NCBI GenBank assembly: GCA_030696315.1
Contig: JAUYSM010000026.1
Location: 1-56,682 of the forward strand
DNA length: 56,682 bases
Direction: 5' to 3'
Source of the DNA: Pseudohongiella sp.
Lineage (GTDB): Bacteria > Pseudomonadota > Gammaproteobacteria > Pseudomonadales > Pseudohongiellaceae
The notes beneath the pieces are model-generated. The model did no database searches, was not told the origin of the DNA, and was given only the letters and a program-made list of their open reading frames with translations. The position numbers were made by a program, and so were the translations under genes. Within the stretch, counting starts at the first letter, position 1; the number at the start of each line of letters is the position of its first letter. This document shows, in pieces, positions 13,990 to 27,874 of the stretch.

Positions 13990-14607
13990 ATGAATAACCA
14001 TGACATGACTGAAAGGGAGCTGTCACGACGACAGTTTCTGGCCGGACTCAGCACTGCCGCCAAAGGCTCATTAATTGTACTGAGTCTGCCCGCGATTCTG
14101 ACTGCCTGCCGCCAAGCGACTGAGCAGACATCTGATGCGTCTGCTACTGCTGACGCAGTCGCCCAATACAGTCTATTGAGTAATGAACTGGCAACGGAAC
14201 TGGATGCCATCAGCGCACGCATTGTTCCCACCGATGACACACCCGGTGCCCGCGAAGCAGGCAGTGTGCGGTTTATGGATATTGTGCTGGCCCAAGGTCG
14301 TCAGGATCAGCTGGAAACGCTGCAAACCGGCGTCACAGAGCTCAACGCCCGCACCAACACTGAGTATGGTGTCGCACTGTTCTCCGCCTTGACCGAAGCC
14401 CAGCAGGATGCGCTGTTGACCGCCATCGAAGCCTCACCATTTTTCAGTACAGTACGTTTTCTGACCGTCGCGTCCTTATTTGCATTGCCACAATACGGCG
14501 GCACCGGTCCGGATGTGGGTTATACGCTGATTGGGATGACCCACGCGCATGCCTATATGCCGCCTTTTGGATATTACGACGCAGACTACACAGCAAGGGG
14601 CGAATAA
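13990..14607 (+). CDS. gluconate 2-dehydrogenase subunit 3-family protein, Tat signal
   Basis: The 205-residue small subunit has an N-terminal twin-arginine signal (SRRQFLAGLSTAAKGSLIV) followed by ILTACRQ, which could also act as a lipobox. The mature part (LSNELATELDAISARIVPTDDTPGAREAG, read in two pieces) is the recognised start of the DUF/Gluconate_2-dh3 family, ending in an alanine/tyrosine-rich segment (YGGTGPDVGYT). These proteins escort or anchor the FAD-containing large subunit that follows. The gap to the GMC oxidoreductase is two bases, so the pair is translationally linked. GGAG precedes the ATG. No cytochrome c subunit, which completes the classical gluconate dehydrogenase complex, is encoded nearby. 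Confidence 0.88.
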   Translation: MNNHDMTERELSRRQFLAGLSTAAKGSLIVLSLPAILTACRQATEQTSDASATADAVAQYSLLSNELATELDAISARIVPTDDTPGAREAGSVRFMDIVLAQGRQDQLETLQTGVTELNARTNTEYGVALFSALTEAQQDALLTAIEASPFFSTVRFLTVASLFALPQYGGTGPDVGYTLIGMTHAHAYMPPFGYYDADYTARGE

Positions 14608-14609
14608 AC

Positions 14610-16277
14610 ATGGCAGAGAACACCTCTTCACCGCGCTACGCAAGCACTGATGAAGTCGATTTTGTAATTGTTGGCTCAGGGTCTGCAGGCGGCATCATGG
14701 CCAAAGAATTATCCACTGCAGGGTTCAGGGTTGTGATCCTTGAACAAGGCCCGCACCTGACAGCCGCCGACTTCCGCCATGATGAGTGGGGTATTGAACA
14801 GAACAACGCGCTGACCTGGAATGCCCGGCAGGGCCATCCACAGACCTTCCGTCGCACTGAAAACGATGTTGCTCAGGCAGGCTCTGGCGGGTTGGGTTAC
14901 GCACATAACGTCGGCGGCAGCAGCATCCATTATTCGGGTAATTTCTGGCGTATGCGGCCGCTGGATTTTAATGAAGCCAGCGTGCGCGGCACCGTGCCCG
15001 GCACCAACTTTGTTGACTGGCCAATCACCTACGAAGAACTTGAACCTTACTACACCAAAGTGGATTGGGAGATTGGTGTGTCCGGGCAACAAGGCCCCTG
15101 GGATCCGCCCCGATCACGAGACTACCCGTGTCCGGCAATGCCAGTGAAGTCTTCCGATGTATTGCTCGAGCGCGGTGCCAAAGCCTTGGGTCTTACCGCA
15201 TATCCAGCGCCAGTTGCCATTCTTTCGCAGCCACACAATGGCCGGCCTGGATGTATTCACTGCGGTTTTTGTAATGGTTACGGCTGTGAAGCCAATGCCA
15301 AGTCGTCCACCATGGTGTCTATGATTCCTTTGGCACTCGCCTCTGGTAATTGTGAACTGCGTACCGGTTGCACGGTGGCGCGGGTCAATACCAATGATGC
15401 CGGCCGTGCCAGCGAAGTTGTGTATTGGGATGCTGACGGTGTTGAACAGTCACAAAGCGCCAAAGCCGTGGTGCTATGTGCCAATGGCGCGGAAACACCG
15501 CGTCTGTTGTTACTGTCAGAATCGGCGCAGCACCCCAACGGACTGGCCAACTCCAGCGGCATGGTCGGAAAGAACTTGATGTTCAACTGCCACGCCTCGG
15601 CCGTGGGTTTGTTTGAACAACCGGTGAATGCCTGGAAAAGTGTGCCGGCCACCCGTGTAATTCACGACTATTACGCACTTGATCCCAATCTGGGGTTTTA
15701 TGGCGGTGGTGGCATAGACGGTCGTCATCCTACACGCGGCACACCCATGGGCTCAGCGATGAACGCCATGTTTGGTGGCCCGAGCTGGGGCGCTGACTAC
15801 AAACGCAACCTGTCCAGAAACTTCAGTTACACCGCAGCATTCAGCGGGCACTGCACGTCACTGCCGCTGGAAACCAATAGTGTGTCACTGGACCCTGAGT
15901 TAAAAGACAAGTTCGGCAGACCAGCACTGCGCACCACCTATCTTGATCATCCGGATGACATCTCAACGGCAAAGTTTTTTATGGAGCGTTGCCTTGAGTT
16001 AATGGATGCCGCTGGCGCCATTCAGAAATATGGTTTTTATCCTGAGAATGGCCAGCGCGGCTCGGTGCATTTGTTGGGCACTTGCCGGATGGGTAATGAC
16101 CCTGCTACCTCGGTGGTAGATCGGTACAATCGGTCGCACGATGTACCGAATCTGTTTATGGTTGATGGCAGTAGTATGGTGACCTCGTCGCGTGGGCAAC
16201 CGACGATGACAATCATGGCGCTGGCATTTCGGGCCGCGGATAACATTATCGGGTTTGCGCGGCGCGGGGAAATCTGA
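14610..16277 (+). CDS. GMC-family FAD oxidoreductase (gluconate 2-dehydrogenase large-subunit type), copy 1
   Basis: The 555-residue flavoprotein has an N-terminal FAD-binding Rossmann motif GSGSAG (residues 22-27) within VDFVIVGSGSAGGIMAKEL, the HNVGGSS GMC signature and the C-terminal active-site region HLLGTCRMG (His487). The final helix is typical (SSRGQPTMTIMALAFRAADN). It oxidises an alcohol or polyol and passes electrons to a partner rather than oxygen; the substrate is unknown. A CxxCxxCxxxxC cluster (Cys215, 218, 221, 226) could hold an iron-sulfur cluster, as in some FAD-dependent glucose dehydrogenases, but spacing differs and this is unproven. It has no export signal of its own, so it probably rides out with the Tat-tagged small subunit two bases upstream. 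A close paralogue lies at 19.9 kb. Confidence 0.9.
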   Translation: MAENTSSPRYASTDEVDFVIVGSGSAGGIMAKELSTAGFRVVILEQGPHLTAADFRHDEWGIEQNNALTWNARQGHPQTFRRTENDVAQAGSGGLGYAHNVGGSSIHYSGNFWRMRPLDFNEASVRGTVPGTNFVDWPITYEELEPYYTKVDWEIGVSGQQGPWDPPRSRDYPCPAMPVKSSDVLLERGAKALGLTAYPAPVAILSQPHNGRPGCIHCGFCNGYGCEANAKSSTMVSMIPLALASGNCELRTGCTVARVNTNDAGRASEVVYWDADGVEQSQSAKAVVLCANGAETPRLLLLSESAQHPNGLANSSGMVGKNLMFNCHASAVGLFEQPVNAWKSVPATRVIHDYYALDPNLGFYGGGGIDGRHPTRGTPMGSAMNAMFGGPSWGADYKRNLSRNFSYTAAFSGHCTSLPLETNSVSLDPELKDKFGRPALRTTYLDHPDDISTAKFFMERCLELMDAAGAIQKYGFYPENGQRGSVHLLGTCRMGNDPATSVVDRYNRSHDVPNLFMVDGSSMVTSSRGQPTMTIMALAFRAADNIIGFARRGEI

Positions 16278-16424: not shown

Positions 16425-18443
16425 TCACGGGCCAAGCAATACTGCCTCGCGCAGCATTAACTTGAGCCCGGCCTCGTCAACCAACTCAAATACGGTTGCA
16501 AAGGTTTGTGCCCCAACTTGAATGACATCCTTGTACATACCAGTTGTCGCTTCAAACTCACCATTACACACGGGTTGCTGGTGCTGCGCATTGGGAGTCT
16601 TTGAAGCATTAAACGCTCTGGATTTAACAATCTGGATAATGCCCTGGTCCATGCTGGTGATGACAAATCCCAGATCAATTTCCGCCAGACCATCCACCGT
16701 TGCCGGCTGCCCGGCATTTAAGATGCGGACACAGGACTGAATGGTCATATCAGCTTCCGTTAACACACCAATATTGTTCAGAGCGGTGTTTATGGATGCC
16801 CCCGGCGCTACGCCCGGGAATGGATAAAGCCAATCTGCGGTCGGGCGATACTGATGTACGGCTGACGAGGCAATTATTACGGGCCCCGGCAAATTATCAG
16901 CAAGTTGCAGGTCAACTCTGAGCAAGGTCTGAAAACCATCACCCGCATCACTCAGACCACCACTTTGCCCCAGATAGCGAGGACCATTGTCATTGATTTG
17001 CACAAACAGACTGTGCTGCCCGCTCCCACCAAAGTTGATTGTCTGCCAATTACCAACATTATTTGAGCCCAGATTTTCCACGAACTCATTGTCCAAAAAC
17101 CGATCACCATCACGATCAATGCGTTGACCCGGCAAATGCCAGACAGCGCGCAGACTGTGTCGTTCAAGATCGCTGGCCAGCACCCGCATTCTGACAGTAC
17201 CTGGCGCTTCACCTGCCACAACCTCGATATTGCCCATGGGCGGATTGTTAAAAACGGGCGTGGTCGCAACATTTAATGACAAAGACAGTAAAAGTTCGGG
17301 AGCTGACAACTGTTGTGTGTCGTCAATGACATACACTTTCCAATCGCCCGGGATGTACTTGATAACACCCGTCTGAACAAAATTGAAGGTTGCAAAACAG
17401 GCATTACGTGCCTTGCAGCTCAATTGCCATTTATCGCGACGATACTCGTAACCACTGGGGTCCACCACCACCACCTGCACAGGCAACTCAATATCCGACT
17501 GATTGTTAAAGTCACCAAGGGGGGCAAAGATTCTGACCCAAAGATCATCAGGCGTAGACGATGTCACTTGCGTTAAGGGCTGATCAAACTGAATTTGATT
17601 GCTGAGCACCAGCATGGCATCGGAGTTAACACGTGAGTTTTGATTATCTTTGAACACGAACTGTGTCCGGCTGGCACTGGCTATCGGTGGCGGAGAAAAC
17701 AGCCATTCGTTTAATACATTGCGCGGATCAATCGGATTGACTGGCGCACCATACATTACCTGCATGGCACGAATATCATCGGCTCTGGGGTATCTGAGAA
17801 ACGTGTAAGGGTCAGCGTACATGATGGAATCCGGATTATCCGAATGACCCAGGCCCAGCAAATGCCCGAGTTCGTGTACCAGTACGCTGGTCATGCCTGA
17901 TTCACAGGTCGCGGAGGTACACGAGGAATTTAACCAGACAAAGCCGTCTGTATACGGAAAATAGCCAGCGGCCTCGTTGTAGTTGCCGGCACGCGGACCG
18001 GCCTGCGCTGCAAACGACCCCGCGCTACTGGCCCAGAACACATTGACTATGCCGTCACGCGACGATTGAGATGCATTGTGATCGACGGGATAATTGCCCG
18101 CCGGCAGTATTTCAAAACGCACACCACTGACGCGCTCCCAGATGGCAGCAGCCTTGCTCAACATCGCCAAAAAATGCTGAGGATCTGTAAACGCCGGTGT
18201 CGCACCCTGCGGGTTGTACCCAAGTCGAATGACATCGGTCCATCGCCCAAAGGTATTACTGATGCCCAACGCCGGCAACACATGAGCATCGCGACCTGCT
18301 TCGGTCTCAATGTCGACCACAGCAAGGGCGGGCGTACCACATGATAGCAACAACAGTAAGCCAGGCAGCAGCTTGCCCATGGCACGTTGTTTCAATCGCG
18401 TATAAAAAGGCGCCAGTCGCACAATCAAATCAGTTTTGCTCAT
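16425..18443 (-). CDS. secreted matrixin-type (M10) metalloprotease with novel C-terminal domain
   Basis: The 672-residue protein has a hydrophobic signal ending near GTPALA, then a metzincin protease domain. The zinc motif is [11 protein letters not shown] (His190, Glu191, His194, His200), with a downstream Met-turn SIMYADPY. Cysteines before the motif ([11 protein letters not shown]) may form a disulfide. The middle of the protein looks like beta-sandwich domains with no firm assignment. The last ~135 residues form a domain that also occurs twice in the BNR protein at 26.0-27.9 kb. The ATG at 18443 has an AGAGG upstream; a shorter start at 18380 (MGKLLPG) gives a more compact signal peptide and remains possible. 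It follows the FadL-type porin by 20 bases on the same strand, so the two probably form an operon. Substrate unknown. Confidence 0.85.
16428..16832 (-). other. shared ~135-residue C-terminal domain (copy in matrixin protease)
   Basis: Begins [10 protein letters not shown] and ends at the protein C-terminus. Conserved marks with the two copies in the BNR protein include F-x-G-V-x-P, LNNIG, a cysteine in SCVRI, DQGII, RAFNAS, PVCNGEF with a second cysteine, YKDVIQVG and a TF..VFEL tail. The two cysteines may form a disulfide. I know no named family for it. Confidence 0.65.
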
Positions 18444-18463
18444 AGCACCTCTCAATGTCTCAT

Positions 18464-19738
18464 TTAAAGTTTAAAGCTATACCCCACCGTCAGGATATCT
18501 TCTTTTAAATGAATATTCGCTTCACCGCCACCAAATGGCATGGGAATAGACCCTTGACCATGAACACTTTCTTTCAGTGCGTGGGTATAAGACAGACTCC
18601 ATTCACCGCCGGAGGCTGTGACCCAGCTCGCGCCGGCACTGATGTGATCGCGGATAGTGCCTGGCGCCAGAATGTTAAAAAAGGTTTCACTGGCCGGAAT
18701 GGGTTGTTCTGATCTGCTGATACCTGCGCGCAAGGTGATGCTATCCGAGAACTGATATACCGCTCCGAGTTTGGTGACGTTGATGTCCTTCCAACCAAAT
18801 CCACCGCCGTAACGTGTGCCCAGTGCATTGCCAGTGAGCAGATTGCTCAAGGGATTGGCAACTGACTTGATGGATGCATATTCGATATGCTGCCAATCAG
18901 CAGCCAGGGTCAGTGCCTCACTGGATTTCCACGCCACACCCAGCCCATAGGTTGCGGGAATATCAAACGCACCTTCTTCAGCAAACAAACCGGCGTAACG
19001 GTCAAATTTGTCCATGTTAATGCGCGATGACCATGCGGCACCCAGTGTCCAGGTGGGGCTCAACTGCCCTGTCCAGCCCAGCTTGACACCGGCTCCTCGA
19101 GCGCTTGCTTCACCATTGTTGGACACCTTGCCCGGACTGGCCGAAAAAAACGGGTTATCAAACGCGCTGACGCCTTTCATTTCAAAGGTCTGGTGCGCGA
19201 AAGTCACTGCAGCACCAAAGGCATGTTTTTCATTGGGCTGCCAGGATATCGAAGGCGTTACAAACAATTGCTCCAGATTCACGCCTGCACTGCCCGTTGA
19301 TCCAAACGCTGCCAGTGGATTAGCGCGGTAGTCGGTATTCATGCCGCCGTTGCCATAAATGGCGAGGCCCACGGTGAGATTGTTTTCCAGAGCGCGCGTG
19401 TAAGCAAATTCAGGAATCAGAAAGTATTGCGTGTCATTGCCGTTGTAGCGGCCATTAGCGCCTGCAAAGTTGCCCGAAATCCCGGCACCTCGGGAAGGAC
19501 GGAACAAACTCACGCCCAGATCCAGCCGATTACCCAGACCCGAGATGCCTGCCGGGTTGGTGGCGGCAATCAGGCCATCTTGCGCCAACGCAATACTGAC
19601 ACCGGCAACCGCTTGTGAGCGCGCCCCAAATCCATGTGAAAAATAACCATTAGTAGCGAGGGCGGTGCCCGGCACCAAGCTTGCTGGTATGACAAGAGCC
19701 GCAATGACGGCAGCTAATCTGGACGATGTTGGACTCAT
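18464..19738 (-). CDS. FadL/OmpP1/TodX-family outer-membrane channel
   Basis: The 424-residue precursor has a signal peptide ending near TALA, then the typical mature start [19 protein letters not shown]. The hatch motif AATNPAGI follows. The rest alternates in beta-strand style with many aromatic residues and ends VGYSFKL, a good outer-membrane C-terminus. FadL homologues let hydrophobic substrates such as fatty acids or aromatic hydrocarbons cross the outer membrane by lateral diffusion. Which substrate is used here cannot be told. GAGGAGG precedes the ATG. The matrixin protease follows 20 bases downstream, an unusual partner. It is divergent from GMC copy 2, with a 185-base AT-rich shared promoter region. 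Confidence 0.9.
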
Positions 19739-19923
19739 GATGGCCTCCTCGCTGAAATAAGGCGCGTAAGATAACCGCGCATCAAAAAATAATAAAGAGA
19801 ATAAATAGAATATCTTTTAGTCCACAAGGGAATATATGATCCAGCTTTTTACGACCGCCTTGAACATGCCCGGACCAAGGCGTACCCTCGGTCATCTGGA
19901 ACAAGCGGCTCAGGAGAAGCAGT
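19739..19923. promoter_or_regulatory. divergent promoter region between fadL-like gene and GMC copy 2
   Basis: The 185 bases hold an AT-rich tract (about 19783-19813) with several TATAAT-like hexamers, and strong ribosome sites at each end. No clear operator was seen. The layout implies a regulatory region shared by both transcripts. Confidence 0.4.
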
Positions 19924-21606
19924 ATGGCTGAAAATCAAACAGTAGCACCCGGCCCGGTCAACTACCCAACACGCGAAGCGGTTGATTTTGTGATTGTTGG
20001 CTCAGGCTCAGCAGGTGGCATCATGGCCAAGGAGTTATCCACCGCTGGATTTTCCGTGGTGGTACTTGAACAGGGTCCGCATCTGACTGCTGCTGATTTC
20101 CGCCACGATGAATGGGGCATAGAGCACAATTTTGATTTGATGTGGGATCACCGCAAAGGGCATCCTCAAACAGAACGGCGGGATGCCAGTGAAGTTGCCC
20201 GACCTGCATCGTATGGCCTGGCATATGCACACAATGTGGGTGGCAGTAGCATTCACTTTTCCGGAAACTTCTGGCGGCTGCGGCCCATTGATTTTGTGGA
20301 AGCCAGTGCTCGGGGCGGAGTGCCCGGCACCAATTTTGTTGACTGGCCCATTACGTATGACGAGCTTGAGCCCTACTACACCAAGGTGGATTGGGAAATT
20401 GGCGTGTCCGGCCTGCAAGGCCCTTGGGATCCGCCGCGCTCGCGGGATTACCCATGCCCGCCCATGCCAATCAAATCATCGGACGTGTTGCTGGAGCGTG
20501 CGGCCAAAGCGCTGGGGCTGAACCCGTATCCGGCGCCGGTCGCTATTCTGTCAAGACCTCACAACGGACGCCCCGCCTGCATTCACTGCGGCTTTTGTAA
20601 CGGTTTTGGCTGTGAAGCCAACGCCAAATCGTCTTCCCTGGTGGCCATGATTCCGCTTGCGCTGGCCTCTGGCAAGTGTGAGTTACGCACCGCCTGCACG
20701 GTATCACGCGTCATCACAAATGATGCCGGTCGTGTCACCGAGGTGGAGTATTGGGATGGCGACGGCCAACAACAGGCACAGCGCGCCAACGCGGTGGTGA
20801 TGTGCGCCAATGGTGCCGAAACGCCACGGTTATTGTTGCTGTCCGCATCCGCACAACACCCGGATGGTTTGGGTAATTCCAGCGCCATGGTCGGCAAAAA
20901 TCTGATGTTTAATGGCTATTCCGCCGCGGTGGGACTGTTTGAACATCCCGTCAATGCCTACAAAAGTATCCCGGCCACACGCGTGATTCACGATTTTTAT
21001 GAACTGGACCCGGCACTGGGTTTTTATGGTGGCGGAGGTATTGATGGGCGTCATCCGCACCGAGGTTTACCCATGGGCACCGCGTTAAGCGCGGGTCTGT
21101 TTGGAGGGGCATCATGGGGCAGCGATTTTAAACGTTCGATGTCTGAGGAATTTACCCATACCGCAGCCTTTGACGGGCACACCACATCACTGCCGCAGGC
21201 GACCAATAATGTGACCCTGGATCCCGACATGAAAGATAAGTTCGGGCGACCAGCAATTCGCACAACGTACAAGGATCACCCGGATGATATCGCCACCATG
21301 AAGTTTTTTATGGAGCGCAGTCTTGAATTGATGGATGCGGCAGGTGCCATCAAAAAAATCGGGTTTTATCCTGAGCAAGGCCAACTCGGATCCGTACATC
21401 TGTTGGGTACATGTCGCATGGGGAATGACCCAACCACCTCGGTGGTCGACAAATTCAACCGTTCACATGATGTCCCCAATCTGTTTATGGTCGATGGCAG
21501 CAGCATGGTGACCTCATCACGCGGGCAACCCACCATGACCATCATGGCGCTGGCCTTTCGGGCGGCGGATAACATCATTCAATTCGCGCGCCGCGGAGAG
21601 ATATAA
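19924..21606 (+). CDS. GMC-family FAD oxidoreductase, copy 2
   Basis: This 560-residue flavoprotein is a close paralogue of the one at 14.6 kb. It shares long identical blocks, including VDFVIVGSGSAGGIMAKEL, the HNVGGSSIH motif, the four-cysteine segment (Cys219, 222, 225, 230) and the C-terminal SSRGQPTMTIMALAF. Differences cluster in the middle (for example FNGYSAAVGLFEHPVNA instead of FNCHASAVGLFEQPVNA), consistent with a related but distinct substrate. Unlike copy 1, no small subunit precedes it, and no export signal is seen. It may use the copy-1 small subunit, or may act in the cytoplasm. GGAGA precedes the ATG. A structured repeat resembling the one after copy 1 follows its stop codon, so the duplication may have included the 3' flank. 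Confidence 0.9.
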   Translation: MAENQTVAPGPVNYPTREAVDFVIVGSGSAGGIMAKELSTAGFSVVVLEQGPHLTAADFRHDEWGIEHNFDLMWDHRKGHPQTERRDASEVARPASYGLAYAHNVGGSSIHFSGNFWRLRPIDFVEASARGGVPGTNFVDWPITYDELEPYYTKVDWEIGVSGLQGPWDPPRSRDYPCPPMPIKSSDVLLERAAKALGLNPYPAPVAILSRPHNGRPACIHCGFCNGFGCEANAKSSSLVAMIPLALASGKCELRTACTVSRVITNDAGRVTEVEYWDGDGQQQAQRANAVVMCANGAETPRLLLLSASAQHPDGLGNSSAMVGKNLMFNGYSAAVGLFEHPVNAYKSIPATRVIHDFYELDPALGFYGGGGIDGRHPHRGLPMGTALSAGLFGGASWGSDFKRSMSEEFTHTAAFDGHTTSLPQATNNVTLDPDMKDKFGRPAIRTTYKDHPDDIATMKFFMERSLELMDAAGAIKKIGFYPEQGQLGSVHLLGTCRMGNDPTTSVVDKFNRSHDVPNLFMVDGSSMVTSSRGQPTMTIMALAFRAADNIIQFARRGEI

Positions 21607-21621
21607 GGGAAATCCAGGAGT

Positions 21622-21637
21622 CGGAGGCATGCCTCCG
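21622..21637. repeat. 16-base perfect palindrome
   Basis: CGGAGGCATGCCTCCG is fully self-complementary and lies 15 bases after the GMC copy-2 stop, next to the larger hairpin. It shares TCGGAGG with the repeat family at 54-56 kb. Confidence 0.5.
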
Positions 21638-21644
21638 GTGGATT

Positions 21645-21737
21645 GAAAGAGCCCGCCATGAGCCGGGAGGTTCCTCGCAACGACGCTTCGCGTCTGATTG
21701 TTGCTCGCTCTCCTCCCGGCTCACGGCGGGCTCTTTC
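21645..21737 (+). repeat. structured intergenic element, copy 2, with 26-base hairpin arms
   Basis: Left arm 21645-21670 and right arm 21712-21737 are complementary over 26 bases with one mismatch (21658/21724). The enclosed core is TTCCTC, a GCAAC/GTTGC stem (21677-21681 with 21700-21704), an inner GACGC/GCGTC stem with a TTC loop (21682-21694) and a TGATT bulge. The core closely matches that at 16313-16353, whereas the outer arms differ entirely. It could act as a terminator for GMC copy 2 or be a transposable palindromic repeat. Confidence 0.65.
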
Positions 21738-21773
21738 ATGGCAAGTTCAGGAGTATGGGTCAGTACGCGTTCG

Positions 21774-21785
21774 CCCTCCGACCCC
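21774..21785 (-). repeat. isolated GGGGTCGGAGGG repeat core
   Basis: CCCTCCGACCCC on the plus strand is the same 12-base core as the repeats at 54.2 and 56.1-56.3 kb. It lies 18 bases beyond the end of the YtcJ-like gene. Confidence 0.45.
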
Positions 21786-21803
21786 TGTGCCACTGGTTTT
21801 ACT

Positions 21804-23546
21804 TCAACGACGGTAAGTAATTTCTCCTCCCACAATAGTCATCACGTTTTCCGCGGTGAGAATCTCCTGCGGCGGCACGGTCATAAAGTCGCGATTAAAG
21901 ACGGTGAAATCGGCGTACTTACCCACCTCAACAGTACCGCGCAGGTTTTCCTGGAAAGAACCATGCGCCGCCCAGCTGGTGAACATTTTTAATGCAGACT
22001 CACGCGATACCGCCAGCTCAGGATGCCAGCCAGCACCATCGGTACCGTCCAGACGTTTGCGCTCAATGGCTGCATAAAATTCAATACGAGGATCACCCAC
22101 TTCCACGGGCGCATCCGAGCCACCCAGAATCATCAGGCCTTTGTCGACCAACTGCTGCCATGGATAGGCATAACCCAGACGATCAGCACCCAAACGATCT
22201 GGCGCAAAATTCAGGTCGCCAATGCCGTGGCTGGGCTGCATGGACGGCAACACACTCATGGTCACGAACCGCTGTTGATCACTGGGCGGAATAATCTGGG
22301 CGTGCTCCATGCGCCAGCGCAGATCCTGACTGATCCACTGATCCTGCGGAATCGCGTCCCAGGCCTCCTGATACCAGTCCAGCAAAGTACGTACCGCACG
22401 GTCACCAATCACGTGTGTCATGATCTGGAAGCCTTGCTGCAGTGAGGCGTGCAACACCGGCACCAGTTCTTCTTTGGTCGTGCGGTTCATAAATCCATTG
22501 TGATCGGCATCGGAATAATTTTCGATCAGCGCTGCGCCACGCGAACCCAGTGTGCCGTCGATATAAACCTTGATGCCACGGACATCAAACATATCGTCAG
22601 CGGTTTTCTCACGACCACGGCGGATAAATTCATTGGCTTCTGCAATCGGCACGGCTGCATAGACGCGATGCGCCATTTGCCCTTCGCTGTGCAATTCCTT
22701 CATCAGATCAACAAGACGCAGTGACATGCCGAGATCGTGCGTTTGTGTCCAGCCCATCGCAGCATTGGCTTGCATGCCACGCAACAAATTGTCCTTGAGG
22801 TACTCGTCGGTTTCCGGCGGCAGAATGTCACGGAATACATTCATGGCGTTGGCGAGCACATAACCGGTGGGGTTGCCATCAATGTCTCGCTCAAATCGCC
22901 CGCCTTCAGGGTCAGGCGTTTCACGTGTCACACCTGCCAGTTCCAGCGCTTTGGAATTCACCAGCGCTGAGACGCCATCCGCACGGGGCATATACAAGGG
23001 TTTGTTTTGAGTAAACGCATCCACGTCGGCTTTGTTCAGAAAGCGCTGTTCATCGGTCCACTCACGCTCGATCCAGCCACGACCTTGAATCCATTCGCCC
23101 TCGGGAATGGTGGCAGCCCATTCTTCAATTCTTGCGACGGTCGCCTCGAGCGTTGGAATACCAAACAGGCTCAAGGTTTTGGTGCGCCGCCCTACCCCTT
23201 CAAGGTGCTGATGGCTGTCAGCAAAACCGGCATACACCGTATTGCCAGCCATATCCAGAATTTCGGCGTCGCCACACATGTAGGCCTGAGCATCTGCATT
23301 GCTGCCCACAAATACAATGCGACCATCCAGCGCTGCAACGGCTTCTGCAGTCCATTGCGCGTCGTTGGCCGTGTAGATGGTGGTGTTGTGGATCACCAGA
23401 TCAGCCGCCTGACAGGCTGTGTCTGTTGCTGATTTTGCCGGTGTTGGCGTTGAAGTAGCGGTGGTCTGTGTTGTTGGCTCGCTGCACGCTGCAGCCAACA
23501 GGCTCAACGCAAAAATGGGGATAATTTTATTGCCGATTCTTTGCAT
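21804..23546 (-). CDS. YtcJ-like amidohydrolase family 3, lipoprotein
   Basis: The 580-residue protein has a lipoprotein signal (AAAC, lipidated Cys21) and a Thr/Pro-rich spacer, then an amidohydrolase-3 domain. The metal-binding HxH is in FADSHQH (His112, His114). Other markers are GIKVYIDGTLGSRGAAL, HVIGDRAVRTLLDW, the RMEHAQI histidine and GGSDAPVE with the catalytic Asp. Length and motif order match the YtcJ group of exported amidohydrolases, whose natural substrates are mostly unknown; N-substituted formamides or amides have been reported for some relatives. It converges with GMC copy 2 and is divergent from the ars operon. Its envelope location parallels the Tat-exported amidohydrolase at 12.3 kb. 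Confidence 0.9.
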   Translation of the reverse strand: MQRIGNKIIPIFALSLLAAACSEPTTQTTATSTPTPAKSATDTACQAADLVIHNTTIYTANDAQWTAEAVAALDGRIVFVGSNADAQAYMCGDAEILDMAGNTVYAGFADSHQHLEGVGRRTKTLSLFGIPTLEATVARIEEWAATIPEGEWIQGRGWIEREWTDEQRFLNKADVDAFTQNKPLYMPRADGVSALVNSKALELAGVTRETPDPEGGRFERDIDGNPTGYVLANAMNVFRDILPPETDEYLKDNLLRGMQANAAMGWTQTHDLGMSLRLVDLMKELHSEGQMAHRVYAAVPIAEANEFIRRGREKTADDMFDVRGIKVYIDGTLGSRGAALIENYSDADHNGFMNRTTKEELVPVLHASLQQGFQIMTHVIGDRAVRTLLDWYQEAWDAIPQDQWISQDLRWRMEHAQIIPPSDQQRFVTMSVLPSMQPSHGIGDLNFAPDRLGADRLGYAYPWQQLVDKGLMILGGSDAPVEVGDPRIEFYAAIERKRLDGTDGAGWHPELAVSRESALKMFTSWAAHGSFQENLRGTVEVGKYADFTVFNRDFMTVPPQEILTAENVMTIVGGEITYRR

Positions 23547-23686
23547 TATTGGTTTCCTGTCCAGAAGGTGTTGCCGGTTTCAGAGCGGCAGTATAACGCC
23601 GCATCGACACAATGTAAGCCTTGATATCAAGCACTTAACTTCTACGATAAATTAGTGCTTGCAGATTTACCGCGACGCGCTACTCT

Positions 23687-23710
23687 ATATTTCAATACTT
23701 ATTGAAATAT
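23687..23710. promoter_or_regulatory. perfect palindromic operator upstream of arsR
   Basis: ATATTTCAATA and TATTGAAATAT form perfect 11-base arms around a CT spacer, 24 bases before the arsR ATG. A further TGAAATATTT half-site follows directly. ArsR/SmtB repressors bind such AT-rich interrupted palindromes over the promoter of their own operon, so this is the likely autoregulatory site. Confidence 0.75.
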
Positions 23711-23733
23711 TGAAATATTTAAATGAGAGACCC

Positions 23734-24099
23734 ATGACGAACTCCGTGATGAATGCGCACACTCACAAGGCTACCGAAGCGCAAGCCCTGCAGCGTTTTT
23801 CGGCCCTATCGCAGGAAACACGCCTGAGAATCGTCCGTCTGCTGGTCGTCGCGGGTGACGAAGGATTGCCTGCTGGCACCATTGCCAGCCAACTTGGCAG
23901 CAGTGATTCGCGGTTGTCATTTCACTTATCCCATCTGGAACATGCTGGCCTGGTGCAATCGCGCCGTGAAGGTCGCTCCATCATTTACAGCGTGGTATTC
24001 CCGGCACTGGCCGCGCTGAGTGAGTTTCTGATCCATGACTGCTGCCAGGGTTTTGAGGAGAACACACATGCACGCTGCAAGTCCCAATCTTGTGACTGA
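23734..24099 (+). CDS. arsR: ArsR-family arsenic-responsive repressor with C-terminal Cys site
   Basis: The 121-residue winged-helix repressor has the ArsR core [15 protein letters not shown] and the recognition helix [16 protein letters not shown]. The CVC motif found in the DNA-binding helix of the E. coli type is absent. Instead a C-terminal cluster is present: Cys103-Cys104 (HDCCQG), Cys115 and Cys120. This resembles the Acidithiobacillus-type As(III) site, so As(III) or methylarsenite sensing is likely. The ATG at 23734 sits just behind a perfect palindrome; an in-frame upstream start at 23659 would place the operator inside the gene and is rejected. The gene overlaps arsH by 32 bases, showing tight co-expression. 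Confidence 0.9.
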
Positions 24100-24781
24100 A
24101 CTGGTCGACTTTCCATCCATCGACAAACTCAGGGCGACCCCGTCAACGCACGCGCCACGGATTCTGTTGTTATACGGCTCGCTGCGCGAGCGCTCTTACA
24201 GCAAGCTGCTGACCTTGGAAGCCGAGCGGCTGCTGCAAATGATGGGCGCGGAAACACGCGTGTTTGATCCGCACGGATTGCCGCTGCCTGATGGAGCAGA
24301 TCCCAGCCATCCCAAAGTCAGAGAATTGTTTGAGCTTTGCATGTGGTCGGAAGGTCAGGTCTGGACCAGCCCGGAACGTCATGGCGCCATGACCGGGGTG
24401 ATGAAATCGCAGATTGACTGGATACCTCTGGCACTGGGCGCCATTCGCCCAACCCAGGGTCGCACGCTCGCTGTGATGCAGGTATGCGGTGGTTCACAGA
24501 GTTTTAACACCGTGAATCAGATGCGGGTCTTGGGCCGTTGGATGCGCATGGTCACCATTCCCAATCAGTCATCGGTCGCCAAAGCCTATGATGAATTTAC
24601 CGAAGAAGGCCGCATGAAGCCATCTTCTTATTATGACCGTGTAGTCGACGTCATGGAGGAACTGATAAAGTTCACGCTGTTAACGCGTGACATTGCTCCC
24701 TATCTGACCAATCGGTACAGCGAACGCAAAGAATCCGCTGAAAAACTCCATCAACGACTCCAACTGGCTACAGCGATTTGA
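24068..24781 (+). CDS. arsH: ArsH, NADPH-dependent FMN organoarsenical oxidase
   Basis: The 237-residue flavodoxin-like protein has the FMN phosphate-binding loop [15 protein letters not shown] and the [18 protein letters not shown] segment diagnostic of ArsH. Known members oxidise toxic trivalent methylarsenite and trivalent aromatic arsenicals to the pentavalent forms, and some reduce quinones or chromate. The chosen ATG at 24068 lies inside the end of arsR; the frame upstream of it is shadow sequence. Its stop codon overlaps the start of the MFS gene. No ArsC reductase or ArsB/Acr3 efflux pump is present, so the operon seems aimed at organoarsenicals rather than arsenate. Confidence 0.93.
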
Positions 24782-26025
24782 ATAACACCGATCAGATTAA
24801 AACCGATGAACTGGTCGGATTGACGCCCACGGGAACCCCGGTTCAGCAACCGCAAAAACGCTGGATAGTCTCGGCGCTCGGCATCATGCAGATTTTTGCC
24901 TGGGGCAGCACCTTTTACCTGCCAGCCATTCTGGCATCGTCGATTGCTGAGGACACCGGCTGGCCGCTGGTGTGGATTGTTGGTTCCTTGTCGATTGGCC
25001 TGGTGGTGGCGGGTCTGGTGTCGCCCAAAGTGGGCGAGCGCATCGATAAAAAAGGTGGCCGCTGGGTGCTGTCGGTCTCTTGTGTGTTGTTGACGCTGGG
25101 ACTGGTGATCACGGGTCTGTCTGTCAACTTGTGGATGTACCTGGCCGGCTGGCTGATCCTGGGCGTTGGCATGGGCACCGGCCTGTACGATGCCGCGTTT
25201 GCCTCGCTTGGCCAGATATATGGACTCAAGGCGCGTTCAGCCATCACGACCTTGACCCTCTGGGGTGGCTTTTCCAGCACGGTATGCTGGCCACTATCAG
25301 CCTGGTTGCTTGCACATGTCGGCTGGCGCAACACCAGCCTGGTCTATGCTGGCATTCTGCTGCTTGTCTGTTTGCCGCTGATCCGCAAGGTGATGCCGGC
25401 GCGTGTCAGACCCGCCATGCGCATGCGCAATGAAGCAAGTTCCAGGGATTTGATACTCAACAACGCTGAACAGCAACAAATGACATTGGTCATGTTGGCC
25501 ATGATGATTGCCGGTGCGATCGGTGCGCTGGTCTCTGTGCACCTGCTATTAATCCTGTCCGAGCGTGAACTGGGCCTGCAGCAAATGGTTGCGCTTGGCG
25601 CCTTGATCGGGCCGGCGCAAGTGGCAGGCAGATTGCTGGAAGCCGCCAACCGCGAACGCCACCATCCTCTGTGGACATTAACCGTCTCAGTAGCACTCAC
25701 TGCGATTGGATTAGTGCTGCTGGCAAGCGGCGCTCAAATCACCGCGCTTGCCATCATACTGTACGGCGCAGGCAATGGCATCTTCAGTATCGCCAAAGGT
25801 GCCCTGCCCTTGTATCTGTTTGGCACAGAACGTTACGCACGCATCATGGGGCGACTCGCCCGGCCCTCGATGTTGGCACAAGCATTGGTACCCGCGCTGG
25901 TCGCCTGGTTACTGGCAGACTATGGCCCCTTGCCATCCCTGCTACTGCTGGCGGCACTGGGGGTCGGTAATGTAGTGATTACCGCCCGCCTGTGGCAGTT
26001 GCGCCGGCAACCGATCAGCGTTTGA
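24778..26025 (+). CDS. MFS transporter in the ars operon
   Basis: The 415-residue protein has about twelve membrane segments, including the motif-A-like loop [14 protein letters not shown] between the second and third. No ATG exists before the first membrane helix, so a TTG at 24778 that overlaps the arsH stop (TTGA) is the likely start; this favours translational coupling. The family resemblance is to general MFS permeases. Its place after arsR-arsH suggests efflux of an arsenical, comparable in role to ArsK or ArsP although it is not clearly either. Substrate is inferred only from neighbours. The 3' end overlaps the convergent BNR gene by 11 bases. Confidence 0.8.
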
Positions 26026-27874
26026 TCAGATCAACCAACCGGAATTCAAACGTATCGGCATTCACCAGATCAAAACGCGCGGTGAAGGTGTCTGGCCCGA
26101 CGCTGATAATGTCCTCGTAACGATTGGTTGAGGTGGCAAACACGCCGCTGCAGGACGGTTGTTCACCGGCAGCCGTCAAGGCATTCCGACTGTTAAACGG
26201 CCGTTGTTTGTTGACGCGGATAATGCCTTGATCCAGATTCACAATATCAAAGGCGATATCAAAACGCTGAGCACTGGCATCATCAGCAGGTGCATTGGTG
26301 TTTTGAATGCGCACACAACTGTAGATACGATTTTCAGGCGCGAAGTAGTTGGCAATGTTGTTCTGCACCAACTGCAACGCCGGGTTGGGTGCCACGCCTG
26401 CAAACGCAGACGGCCAGCCATCAAAGGGCAGTACGTCTTTGATGTCCAGCGTTTTCAACGTTAACGCGGCTTCGCTTAGCAACTCAAACGTAAAGCGTCT
26501 GGTGACATCCCCGACTTTGATCACGTCCGTGTAGCGCCCGGTGGTCGCCTCAAACACACCGCTGCAAGTCGGTAACTGCCCCGAACTGGTCAGTGCATTG
26601 CCGGCATTAAAGGCGCGCTCACGCAGCACCTGAATCTGCTGGATCTGATCACCCTGTTTACCGATGATTTTTAATGCCATATCAAACCGGGGTATGCCGT
26701 TTAACGACGACGGCTGGCCGTTGGCCTGAATGTTGATGCAGGTGTAAATGATGTCGTTGGCCGTATCCAGATGACCAATATTATTCAGATCCAGCCACAA
26801 GGCAGCATCCGGAGTAACACCATTAAAGGCGGAAGGCCACAACGGTGGTGCCGGCGGCTCCGGCTCTTTGGGCGGTTCGGGCTCGACGGGCGGTGCGACT
26901 GTGGCAACGGTGGTGCGGTAATACCCTGAGTTAGCTGCTTTCCCGGTGTTGTGATAGATCACCATCTTGTTTTGGGAAAACGCGATCGCAAAGCGTGTCA
27001 CGCTGGAGACTTCAGGCAACAGTTCCAGCACTTGTGTCCAGTTATCGCCGCGATCGGTTGAGGTCAGCACGTAGGACTTGCGATCAAAGGTTTCGCCAAC
27101 GGCGTACAAGGTTGTGCCCGAGGCCGCGATATCGCGCAAGGTGATTTTGAACAGACCAACAAAATCCGGCAGCGTGTTGGAAATGCTGTACCAGACCCCT
27201 TCATTGTTGTCCCAGCGGCGTGCTCCAAAGTCCATTATGAGATAAACGTCGTTACCCACGGTCACTAATTGCCTTGGCGCCCCACTTAGCCACTGATCGG
27301 CGCCGTGTTTCAGCCACGTCACACCTTGATCAGTGCTGCGGTACAAACCGCCGCTGGAGATCACAAATATACCGCTGCTGGAGATGGTGCCATCGGCGGC
27401 GGATTCACTTCTTGAGGTTGTGTATTTGCGAATCGTCCAGTTCGCACCCTTGTCTGTAGAAATAAATACTTCATCGCGGTTGGAGACACCCAACAGCACT
27501 GAGCCATCGTAGACCAGATCGTTGATCACGCCATTACTGGTGACCTGCGGCCGACTTACCTCTGTCCAGGTCTGGCCATTATCTGAACTTTTCAGAAAGA
27601 TCATCGCCGCCGGCGGTGATTGCATGCGCATGGCGTACACTTCCTGCCCGATACTGACCATCGCGGTCACCCTGTCGGTCAATCCAGTCACTTCCGTCCA
27701 GCTTTGGCCGGCATCGGTCGAACGCAAGGTTTTGTCTTCGTAGTGAAACAGCACATTGCCATGTGCCAGCAGTTTTGAGGTATTGCGCACACTGGCGGGT
27801 GCTTGCAGCACTTCCCAGGACTGCGCGTGCACAAAGACCGGAAACAGCAGAGTGAGGATCAGAAAAAAACGCAT
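26015..27874 (-). CDS. secreted Asp-box (BNR) repeat protein with two novel C-terminal domains
   Basis: The 619-residue protein has a cleavable signal (RFFLILTLLFPVFVHAQ). Residues ~20-325 form a beta-propeller-like domain with at least five Asp-box repeats (STDAGQSW, SSDNGQTW, STDKGANW, STDQGVTW, STDRGDNW), as in sialidase or Vps10/BNR proteins. A proline/glutamate-rich linker (residues ~327-345) leads to two tandem copies of a ~135-residue domain (346-486 and 487-619). The same domain ends the matrixin protease at 16.4 kb. No catalytic sialidase residues were recognised, so binding or surface display is more likely than catalysis. An 11-G homopolymer lies 82 bases upstream of its start. Confidence 0.8.
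   Translation of the reverse strand: MRFFLILTLLFPVFVHAQSWEVLQAPASVRNTSKLLAHGNVLFHYEDKTLRSTDAGQSWTEVTGLTDRVTAMVSIGQEVYAMRMQSPPAAMIFLKSSDNGQTWTEVSRPQVTSNGVINDLVYDGSVLLGVSNRDEVFISTDKGANWTIRKYTTSRSESAADGTISSSGIFVISSGGLYRSTDQGVTWLKHGADQWLSGAPRQLVTVGNDVYLIMDFGARRWDNNEGVWYSISNTLPDFVGLFKITLRDIAASGTTLYAVGETFDRKSYVLTSTDRGDNWTQVLELLPEVSSVTRFAIAFSQNKMVIYHNTGKAANSGYYRTTVATVAPPVEPEPPKEPEPPAPPLWPSAFNGVTPDAALWLDLNNIGHLDTANDIIYTCINIQANGQPSSLNGIPRFDMALKIIGKQGDQIQQIQVLRERAFNAGNALTSSGQLPTCSGVFEATTGRYTDVIKVGDVTRRFTFELLSEAALTLKTLDIKDVLPFDGWPSAFAGVAPNPALQLVQNNIANYFAPENRIYSCVRIQNTNAPADDASAQRFDIAFDIVNLDQGIIRVNKQRPFNSRNALTAAGEQPSCSGVFATSTNRYEDIISVGPDTFTARFDLVNADTFEFRLVDLIKR
26018..26416 (-). other. shared ~135-residue domain, second copy in BNR protein
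   Basis: Residues 487-619, starting WPSAFAGVAPNPAL and running to the C-terminus. Key marks are QNNIANYF, SCVRIQN, RFDIAFDIVN, LDQGIIRV, RPFNSRNAL, PSCSGVF, YEDIISVG and TARFDLV. Confidence 0.65.
26417..26839 (-). other. shared ~135-residue domain, first copy in BNR protein
   Basis: Residues 346-486, starting WPSAFNGVTPDAAL. Marks are LNNIGHL, TCINIQ, RFDMALKI, RAFNAGNAL, PTCSGVF, YTDVIKVG and TFELLS. A few extra residues sit between RFD and RAFN compared with the other copies. Confidence 0.65.

What the first reader, a model, noticed from the sequence alone, without database searches (positions are those of the whole stretch)
16428..26839. Unassigned ~135-residue C-terminal domain shared by two different secreted proteins
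The last ~135 residues of the matrixin metalloprotease (16428-16832) align almost without gaps to two tandem copies at the end of the BNR protein (26417-26839 and 26018-26416), 9 kb away. Shared positions include F-x-G-V-x-P, NNI, a Cys before an (V/I)x(I) strand, RxFN, P-x-C-x-G-x-F, Y-x-D-x-I-x-V-G and a final F-x-L. Two cysteines are constant. A C-terminal position on a protease and on a propeller suggests a sorting, surface-anchoring or binding module. I recognise no named family.
Basis: partly seen in the sequence, partly recalled or inferred. Interest (0 to 1): 0.75.

Follow-up and report, generated by a model that had tools for sequence, protein, structure and literature searches.

The report
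Unnamed stick-on module of secreted proteins
A roughly 137-residue, two-cysteine module with no family name sits on many unrelated, probably exported proteins of one family of mostly aquatic bacteria, and most likely serves as a binding handle for proteins released outside the cell.

Summary
Three related segments of about 137 residues end the matrixin (16428-16850, minus strand) and, in tandem, the BNR protein (26432-26851, 26018-26434, minus). Alignment scores are 226-244, against at most 58 in 1000 shuffles. A fourth copy lies elsewhere in the genome on a DUF5122 propeller.

No Pfam, NCBIfam or PHROGs family fits: among 51 diverse copies only single chance-level matches appear. Two AlphaFold2 models (pLDDT 87 and 81) give the same eight strands; three Foldseek searches found nothing at E 0.001. 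All 51 copies have exactly two cysteines.

Good matches were found only in one bacterial family (41 of 137 genomes, 2 of 8 genera). Partners include esterases, peptidases, lectins, LRR and PKD proteins, propellers, G8/CEMIP and PPDK_N. The domain is C-terminal in 47 of 62 ORFs and N-terminal or interior in 15. In one genus 17 of 89 esterase rows carry it and 72 show no copy. This argues against a general C-terminal sorting tag and for a mobile binding module, comparable in role to PPC domains.

The ligand is unknown and binding is inferred, not shown. A new domain family of a known kind, with a possibly new fold.

The parts
16428..16850 (-). domain copy at the C-terminus of the matrixin
   Evidence: hmmsearch with the 4-copy profile, envelope 16434-16850; stop codon at 16425-16427
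26432..26851 (-). domain copy 1 of the tandem pair in the BNR protein
   Evidence: hmmsearch; shuffle test
26018..26434 (-). domain copy 2, C-terminal end of the BNR protein
   Evidence: hmmsearch; shuffle test
16425..18455 (-). host ORF: matrixin-type metalloprotease (start codon uncertain; Met26 at 18380 fits a signal peptide)
   Evidence: PF00413 E 2e-10 over residues 91-236; ORF
18321..18380 (-). likely signal peptide of the matrixin, from Met26
   Evidence: crude hydrophobic-core and cleavage-site rule
26015..27874 (-). host ORF: BNR/sortilin-like propeller protein
   Evidence: PF15902 and PF02012 above their cut-offs; ORF
27818..27874 (-). likely signal peptide of the BNR protein
   Evidence: rule, 19 residues; cleavage after residue 17 looks equally possible
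26840..26893 (-). Pro/Glu-rich linker between the propeller and domain copy 1
   Evidence: read from the translation

Best explanation
The segment is an independently folding, disulphide-clamped, all-beta accessory module that works as a binding handle. Appended to exported hydrolases, lectin-like and propeller proteins, it would hold the partner on a particulate or polymeric substrate, as PPC domains do for other marine proteases. The conserved stretch R-x-F-N ... P-x-C-S-G (residues 78-97 of the matrixin copy, mostly loop), pinned by the Cys40-Cys95 pair, and the Y-x-D strand after it are the best candidates for the binding face. Shown: homology, modularity, presence and absence on homologous enzymes with a sharp junction, two invariant cysteines, near restriction to one bacterial family in the samples searched, and a recent sharing of domain DNA between unrelated genes. 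Supported by prediction only: export and the eight-strand fold. Inferred: the disulphide, the binding face, that it binds at all, and the ligand.
For: (1) Many unrelated partners, mostly types that usually act outside the cell (recalled): matrixin, M23 peptidase, a reprolysin-like protease (below Pfam's cut-off) with a C-type lectin, PHB-depolymerase-like esterase, G8/CEMIP, C-type lectin, LRR, PKD-type, BNR and DUF5122 propellers. (2) Export signals are commoner than in neighbouring ORFs: 31 of 58 against 32 of 163 by a strict rule, Fisher p 2e-6; 47 of 58 against 89 of 153 by a loose one. (3) The partner does not always need it: of 89 esterase rows at E 1.1e-54 or better in 84 genomes of one genus, 17 are long ORFs whose places agree with domain hits, and 72 have no such hit (the 72 include a few fragments or broken ORFs). 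At least 8 genomes hold both forms. In 30 esterase loci read, 4 run on into the domain, 25 stop within 15 residues of the end of the aligned catalytic part, and 1 is cut short. (4) Mobility: an esterase (L028) and a PKD-type protein (L030) from different records share 89.3% DNA identity over 356 bases, from 73 bases inside the domain to 5 bases past its end; host classes change 17 times on the domain tree, the least possible being 11. (5) Position-independent: 47 ORFs C-terminal, 15 N-terminal or interior, tandem in BNR. (6) The long loop averages 2.03 bits of conservation against 1.88 for strands. (7) PPC domains, the closest analogue in role, were shown to bind protein substrates (PMC3327674, abstract and passages).
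Against: No binding was measured. No structural match to any binding-module fold was found, and nothing points to one ligand. Partners act on chemically different substrates, so one substrate-binding module for all is odd; a shared place, such as the cell surface, would fit that better. Some partners are not enzymes (propellers, LRR), and PPDK_N is usually cytoplasmic (recalled), although that ORF has a signal-like start. Strands b5-b6 are more conserved (2.38 bits) than the loop, so the conservation may be structural. In all 8 genomes of the window's genus with a matrixin match the domain goes with it, so there it may be obligatory. The strict export rule missed 27 of 58 domain ORFs.
Confidence: 0.48

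Rival explanations
1. Surface-retention module: the domain binds a component of the producer's own outer surface (O-antigen, capsule or an outer-membrane protein), so that different exported proteins stay on the cell.
For: One domain on partners with different substrates is well explained by a common destination; lineage restriction (41 of 137 genomes, 2 of 8 genera) fits a lineage-specific surface; non-enzymatic partners also fit.
Against: Related esterases of the same genus, in at least 8 cases in the same genome, lack it; position varies. No candidate receptor gene was found, but this was hardly searched: most fetched flanks are short.
Confidence: 0.27
2. C-terminal sorting signal for a dedicated secretion or anchoring machine (like T9SS C-terminal domains, PEP-CTERM or GlyGly-CTERM tags).
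For: 47 of 62 ORFs end within 6 residues of the domain.
Against: 15 of 62 carry it at the N-terminus or inside; no NCBIfam or Pfam sorting-tag family matches; the copies shown end without a hydrophobic helix and basic tail; few copies per genome, at most 7 places. The secretion-machine search did not complete.
Confidence: 0.08
3. Stability, folding or activity-control domain (a shield or inhibitor of its partner), without binding of an outside ligand.
For: PPC domains of another protease, MCP-03, were reported as inhibitory and stabilising (passage in PMC3327674); matrixin and domain co-occur in 8 of 8 genomes.
Against: The same domain on esterases, lectins, LRR proteins and propellers makes a partner-specific role unlikely; esterases without a copy exist.
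Confidence: 0.12

Closest known systems
PPC domain (pre-peptidase C-terminal, PF04151) of marine gammaproteobacterial proteases
   Same: C-terminal, sometimes tandem, accessory module on exported metalloproteases; bound protein substrates in tests (PMC3327674, abstract and passages)
   Different: No PPC match in any of 51 members; longer (about 137 residues; PPC recalled as about 70); also on esterases, LRR proteins and propellers; may stand at the N-terminus
PKD and bacterial Ig-like domains
   Same: Beta-rich spacers or binding modules on exported proteins; PKD_4, K319L-like PKD or Big_5 segments stand beside this domain in several hosts, some below Pfam's cut-off
   Different: Separate domain with its own two cysteines; no member matches these families
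T9SS C-terminal sorting domain, PEP-CTERM, GlyGly-CTERM (recalled)
   Same: Shared C-terminal segment on unrelated exported proteins
   Different: No library match; not always C-terminal; no membrane tail in the copies shown
Carbohydrate-binding modules
   Same: Modular, shuffled appendages of hydrolases
   Different: No CBM family of Pfam matches; no PDB fold match at E 0.001

Membership tests
PPC (PF04151) | match to the Pfam profile | tested here: not met
   0 of 51 members at E 0.1
PPC (PF04151) | accessory module on exported proteases | tested here: met
   matrixin with a signal-like start; also on non-proteases
PPC (PF04151) | binds protein substrate | not testable with these tools
   needs a bench assay
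T9SS / PEP-CTERM / GlyGly-CTERM sorting tags | always at the C-terminus | tested here: not met
   15 of 62 ORFs have it at the N-terminus or inside
T9SS / PEP-CTERM / GlyGly-CTERM sorting tags | match to the NCBIfam or Pfam tag model | tested here: not met
   0 of 51 members at E 0.1
T9SS / PEP-CTERM / GlyGly-CTERM sorting tags | partner sortase or translocon in the genome | not tested
   the only machinery search asked for (T2SS secretin) did not complete in five tries; sortases were not searched
Carbohydrate-binding modules | known CBM profile or fold | tested here: not met
   no profile match, no fold match at E 0.001
Carbohydrate-binding modules | binds a glycan | not testable with these tools
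   needs a bench assay
any family with a solved relative | sequence match in the PDB | tested here: not met
   best E 0.31 and 0.36

The most novel reading that the evidence does not exclude
A family-specific address or glue domain with a new eight-strand fold, which moves by recombination onto unrelated exported proteins of Pseudohongiellaceae and gathers them at one shared place (one ligand on the cell or on particles): a lineage's own common tag for its extracellular proteins.
Probability: 0.25. Interest if true: 0.7.

Novelty: new variant of a known kind. Interest (0 to 1): 0.5.

Why it matters
It would be a new, nameable domain family that lets many uncharacterised exported proteins of little-studied aquatic bacteria (Pseudohongiella, OM182 and relatives) be recognised. 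The esterases with and without the domain make its role directly testable. A cultured strain, LSUCC0112, carries the matrixin form (paper PMC6606908, search listing and start of the abstract only).

Tried and rejected
Pfam, NCBIfam, PHROGs and PDB-sequence searches gave only chance-level matches; in the three family libraries each was to a single member (E 0.017 at best). Foldseek against PDB (two models) and BFVD (first model) gave nothing at E 0.001. The matrixin copy found nothing in plasmids. Of 8 candidate stretches in the viral-contig scan one was a relative, L063; the phage hits of its host protein lie in the LRR part and were set aside. A conserved operon with the FadL-like gene was considered: no FadL row was found in the fetched relatives, but most flanks are short; in L027 a 512-aa ORF of the other strand lies upstream of the matrixin instead. 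One neighbour is shared there: a relative of the window's gluconate 2-dehydrogenase subunit 3 about 2 kb from the matrixin. Around the BNR gene the order is kept in the close relative L022.

The signal-peptide rules are crude; the loose form also called 89 of 153 controls, so a stricter form was run. Taxonomic restriction rests on samples, and in the order and class scans the second look took at most 10 or 11 candidates a genome. A5 over the order gave 8 of 390 at E 0.01, of which 3 are weak (0.002-0.0085), two of them outside the family; over the class 1 of 369, the own genome. A3 over the order gave 5 of 390 at E 0.001. only repeated part. Paper searches: one search found one paper with both terms (not read); the listings of 78 (10 of 550 shown) and 79 (1 paper) showed nothing on such a domain. 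The library lacks most subscription journals, so this is weak evidence of absence.

The set of 76 ORFs was freed of exact containments only and still holds close orthologues. Fourteen of them, with partial or weak copies, were left out of the position count. For A5, three copies with X letters were left out and copies over 85% identical to one kept were dropped (61 to 52); one more (short ORF L057) was not used, giving 51. In one search X letters were removed from rows before the tree. In one search the domain was masked by X to cluster the hosts.
Full report
OBSERVATION. The three segments are real and homologous (scores 226-244, at most 58 in 1000 shuffles). A fourth copy in the same genome ends a protein with the DUF5122 propeller family. 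With the four as a profile, further copies turned up in the genus (9 of 56 genomes, all of one genus) and in ten loci of named records.

DISTRIBUTION. In the family scan 41 of 137 genomes have a match at E 0.001, in 2 of 8 genera: 9 of 15 in the window's genus, 32 of 84 in a second genus, and 0 of the 38 others. Up to 7 places occur in one genome (G447), where two pairs look like duplicate contigs. Across a sample of the order 5 of 390 have a match with A3, all of the window's genus; with the wider A5, 8 of 390 at E 0.01, the three additions being weak. Across a sample of the class 1 of 369, the own genome. Plasmids: no match. Viral contigs: one relative, L063. The order and class scans scored at most 10 or 11 candidates a genome, so misses are possible.

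ARCHITECTURE. Seventy-six non-identical ORFs were gathered from the fetched loci. The parts outside the domain fall into 15 groups by mutual similarity, single ORFs included; eight short ORFs had too little outside the domain to group. Not every member was scanned against Pfam; names come from these: of 16 esterases one was scanned (PF02230, PF10503); of 15 ORFs linked by C-type lectin, LRR and PKD-type parts twelve were; of 14 proteins with the domain at the N-terminus or inside four were (Big_5 in L071, L075 and L082, a matrixin-like segment just below the cut-off in L071, nothing in L098); of 8 matrixins the window's. One matrixin, L010, is a piece of a gene split over two frames. Smaller groups: G8/CEMIP (2), BNR (2), DUF5122 (2), a beta-lactamase-fold pair with a weak copy, and single ORFs with PPDK_N, M23, an SBBP/NHL propeller (weak copy), no family (L056, L064, L101), or a BNR remnant (L011). 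Of 62 ORFs with a full copy (64 copies), 47 end within 6 residues of it and 15 do not.

NATURAL EXPERIMENT. The esterase catalytic part was sought in the 84 genomes of the second genus: 77 have a match. Of 89 rows at E 1.1e-54 or better, 17 belong to long ORFs (427-491 aa, one with an inner stop, two on duplicate-looking contigs) whose places agree with domain hits, and 72 have no such hit; the 72 include a few fragments and broken ORFs (counted by hand from the table). At least 8 genomes hold both forms. Thirty loci returned by that search were read: in 4 the domain follows directly on the catalytic end (EWLYAHPK|SEWPSLYSGVTP in L023); in 25 the protein stops within 15 residues of the end of the aligned part, and one is cut by an early stop. 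By the strict rule 22 of the 30 have a signal peptide, 21 of them among the 26 without the domain. So the partner probably folds and is exported without the domain. In the window's genus the case differs: 8 of 15 genomes have a matrixin match, and all 8 carry the domain in the same or a split frame. In three close orthologues the domain is about as conserved as the middle region (69-76% against 71-74%) and less than the catalytic part (79-82%); in two distant ones the figures are 32-35%, 31-36% and 48-50%.

MOBILITY. In a 64-row tree host classes need 17 changes, 11 being the least and 40.8 the shuffled mean: domains mostly stay with their host type but have jumped several times (the lectin/PKD/LRR class is mixed and several branches are long, so details are unsure). 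The clearest case is an esterase (L028) and a PKD-type protein (L030) with 89.3% identical DNA over 356 bases, beginning 73 bases inside the domain and ending 5 bases past its end. L063 is a contig of the IMG/VR collection whose LRR protein ends in the domain; a gene nearby matches PHROG 6278 (4e-48, function unknown). A phage vehicle is possible, not shown.

FOLD. Two models from different query copies give the same eight strands in the same order, from shallow alignments (13 and 14 rows). No Foldseek match reached E 0.001. Cys40 lies in strand 2 and Cys95 just before strand 5; both are in 51 of 51 copies, and no copy has another, which in exported proteins suggests a disulphide (inference).

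FUNCTION. Modular, dispensable in one partner family, position-independent, on probably exported proteins: this is how binding appendages behave. In protease E495 of Pseudoalteromonas a PPC domain binds protein substrates and goes with higher activity on proteins but not on small peptides (PMC3327674, abstract and passages). A study of North Sea Gammaproteobacteria says that Halieaceae and HTCC2089/Pseudohongiellaceae possibly prefer large biopolymers other than polysaccharides, expected to be largely protein (PMC8371827, passages). Both fit a substrate-binding role; neither tests it. Retention on the producer's surface is the main rival, since the partners' substrates differ. A strict C-terminal sorting signal is unlikely.

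NOVELTY. I found no family, solved relative or paper for it in the searches made. It is a new family within the known kind 'accessory module of exported proteins'; the fold may be new, but AlphaFold DB could not be searched.

Noticed in passing
window 18464-19738 (-) and 16425-18455 (-): An OMPP1/FadL/TodX outer-membrane transporter gene (PF03349) lies 8 bases upstream of the matrixin ORF on the same strand, as in an operon; no FadL row in the relatives fetched, mostly with short flanks.
   Followed up: partly
window 13990-16277 and 19924-21606 (+); L027 1-438 (-): Two similar GMC oxidoreductase genes, the first preceded by a gluconate 2-dehydrogenase subunit 3 gene, flank the FadL-matrixin pair; a relative of the subunit 3 gene also lies about 2 kb from the matrixin of LSUCC0112.
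   Followed up: partly
L063 1031-2236: A contig of the IMG/VR viral collection encodes an LRR protein ending in the same domain, near a gene matching PHROG 6278.
   Followed up: partly
L098 2573-4594 and L099 3877-5895: Diverged copies just behind the signal-like start of a protein in which no Pfam family was found (L098 scanned); it holds an HExxH motif.
   Followed up: partly
L011 1318-1833: A truncated BNR-type copy runs into a stretch resembling the neighbouring amidohydrolase of the window: a rearranged remnant or an assembly chimera.
   Followed up: no
L097 3014-6109: A PPDK_N (pyruvate phosphate dikinase ATP-binding) domain in an ORF with a signal-like start, ending in this domain; an odd partner for an exported module.
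   Followed up: no
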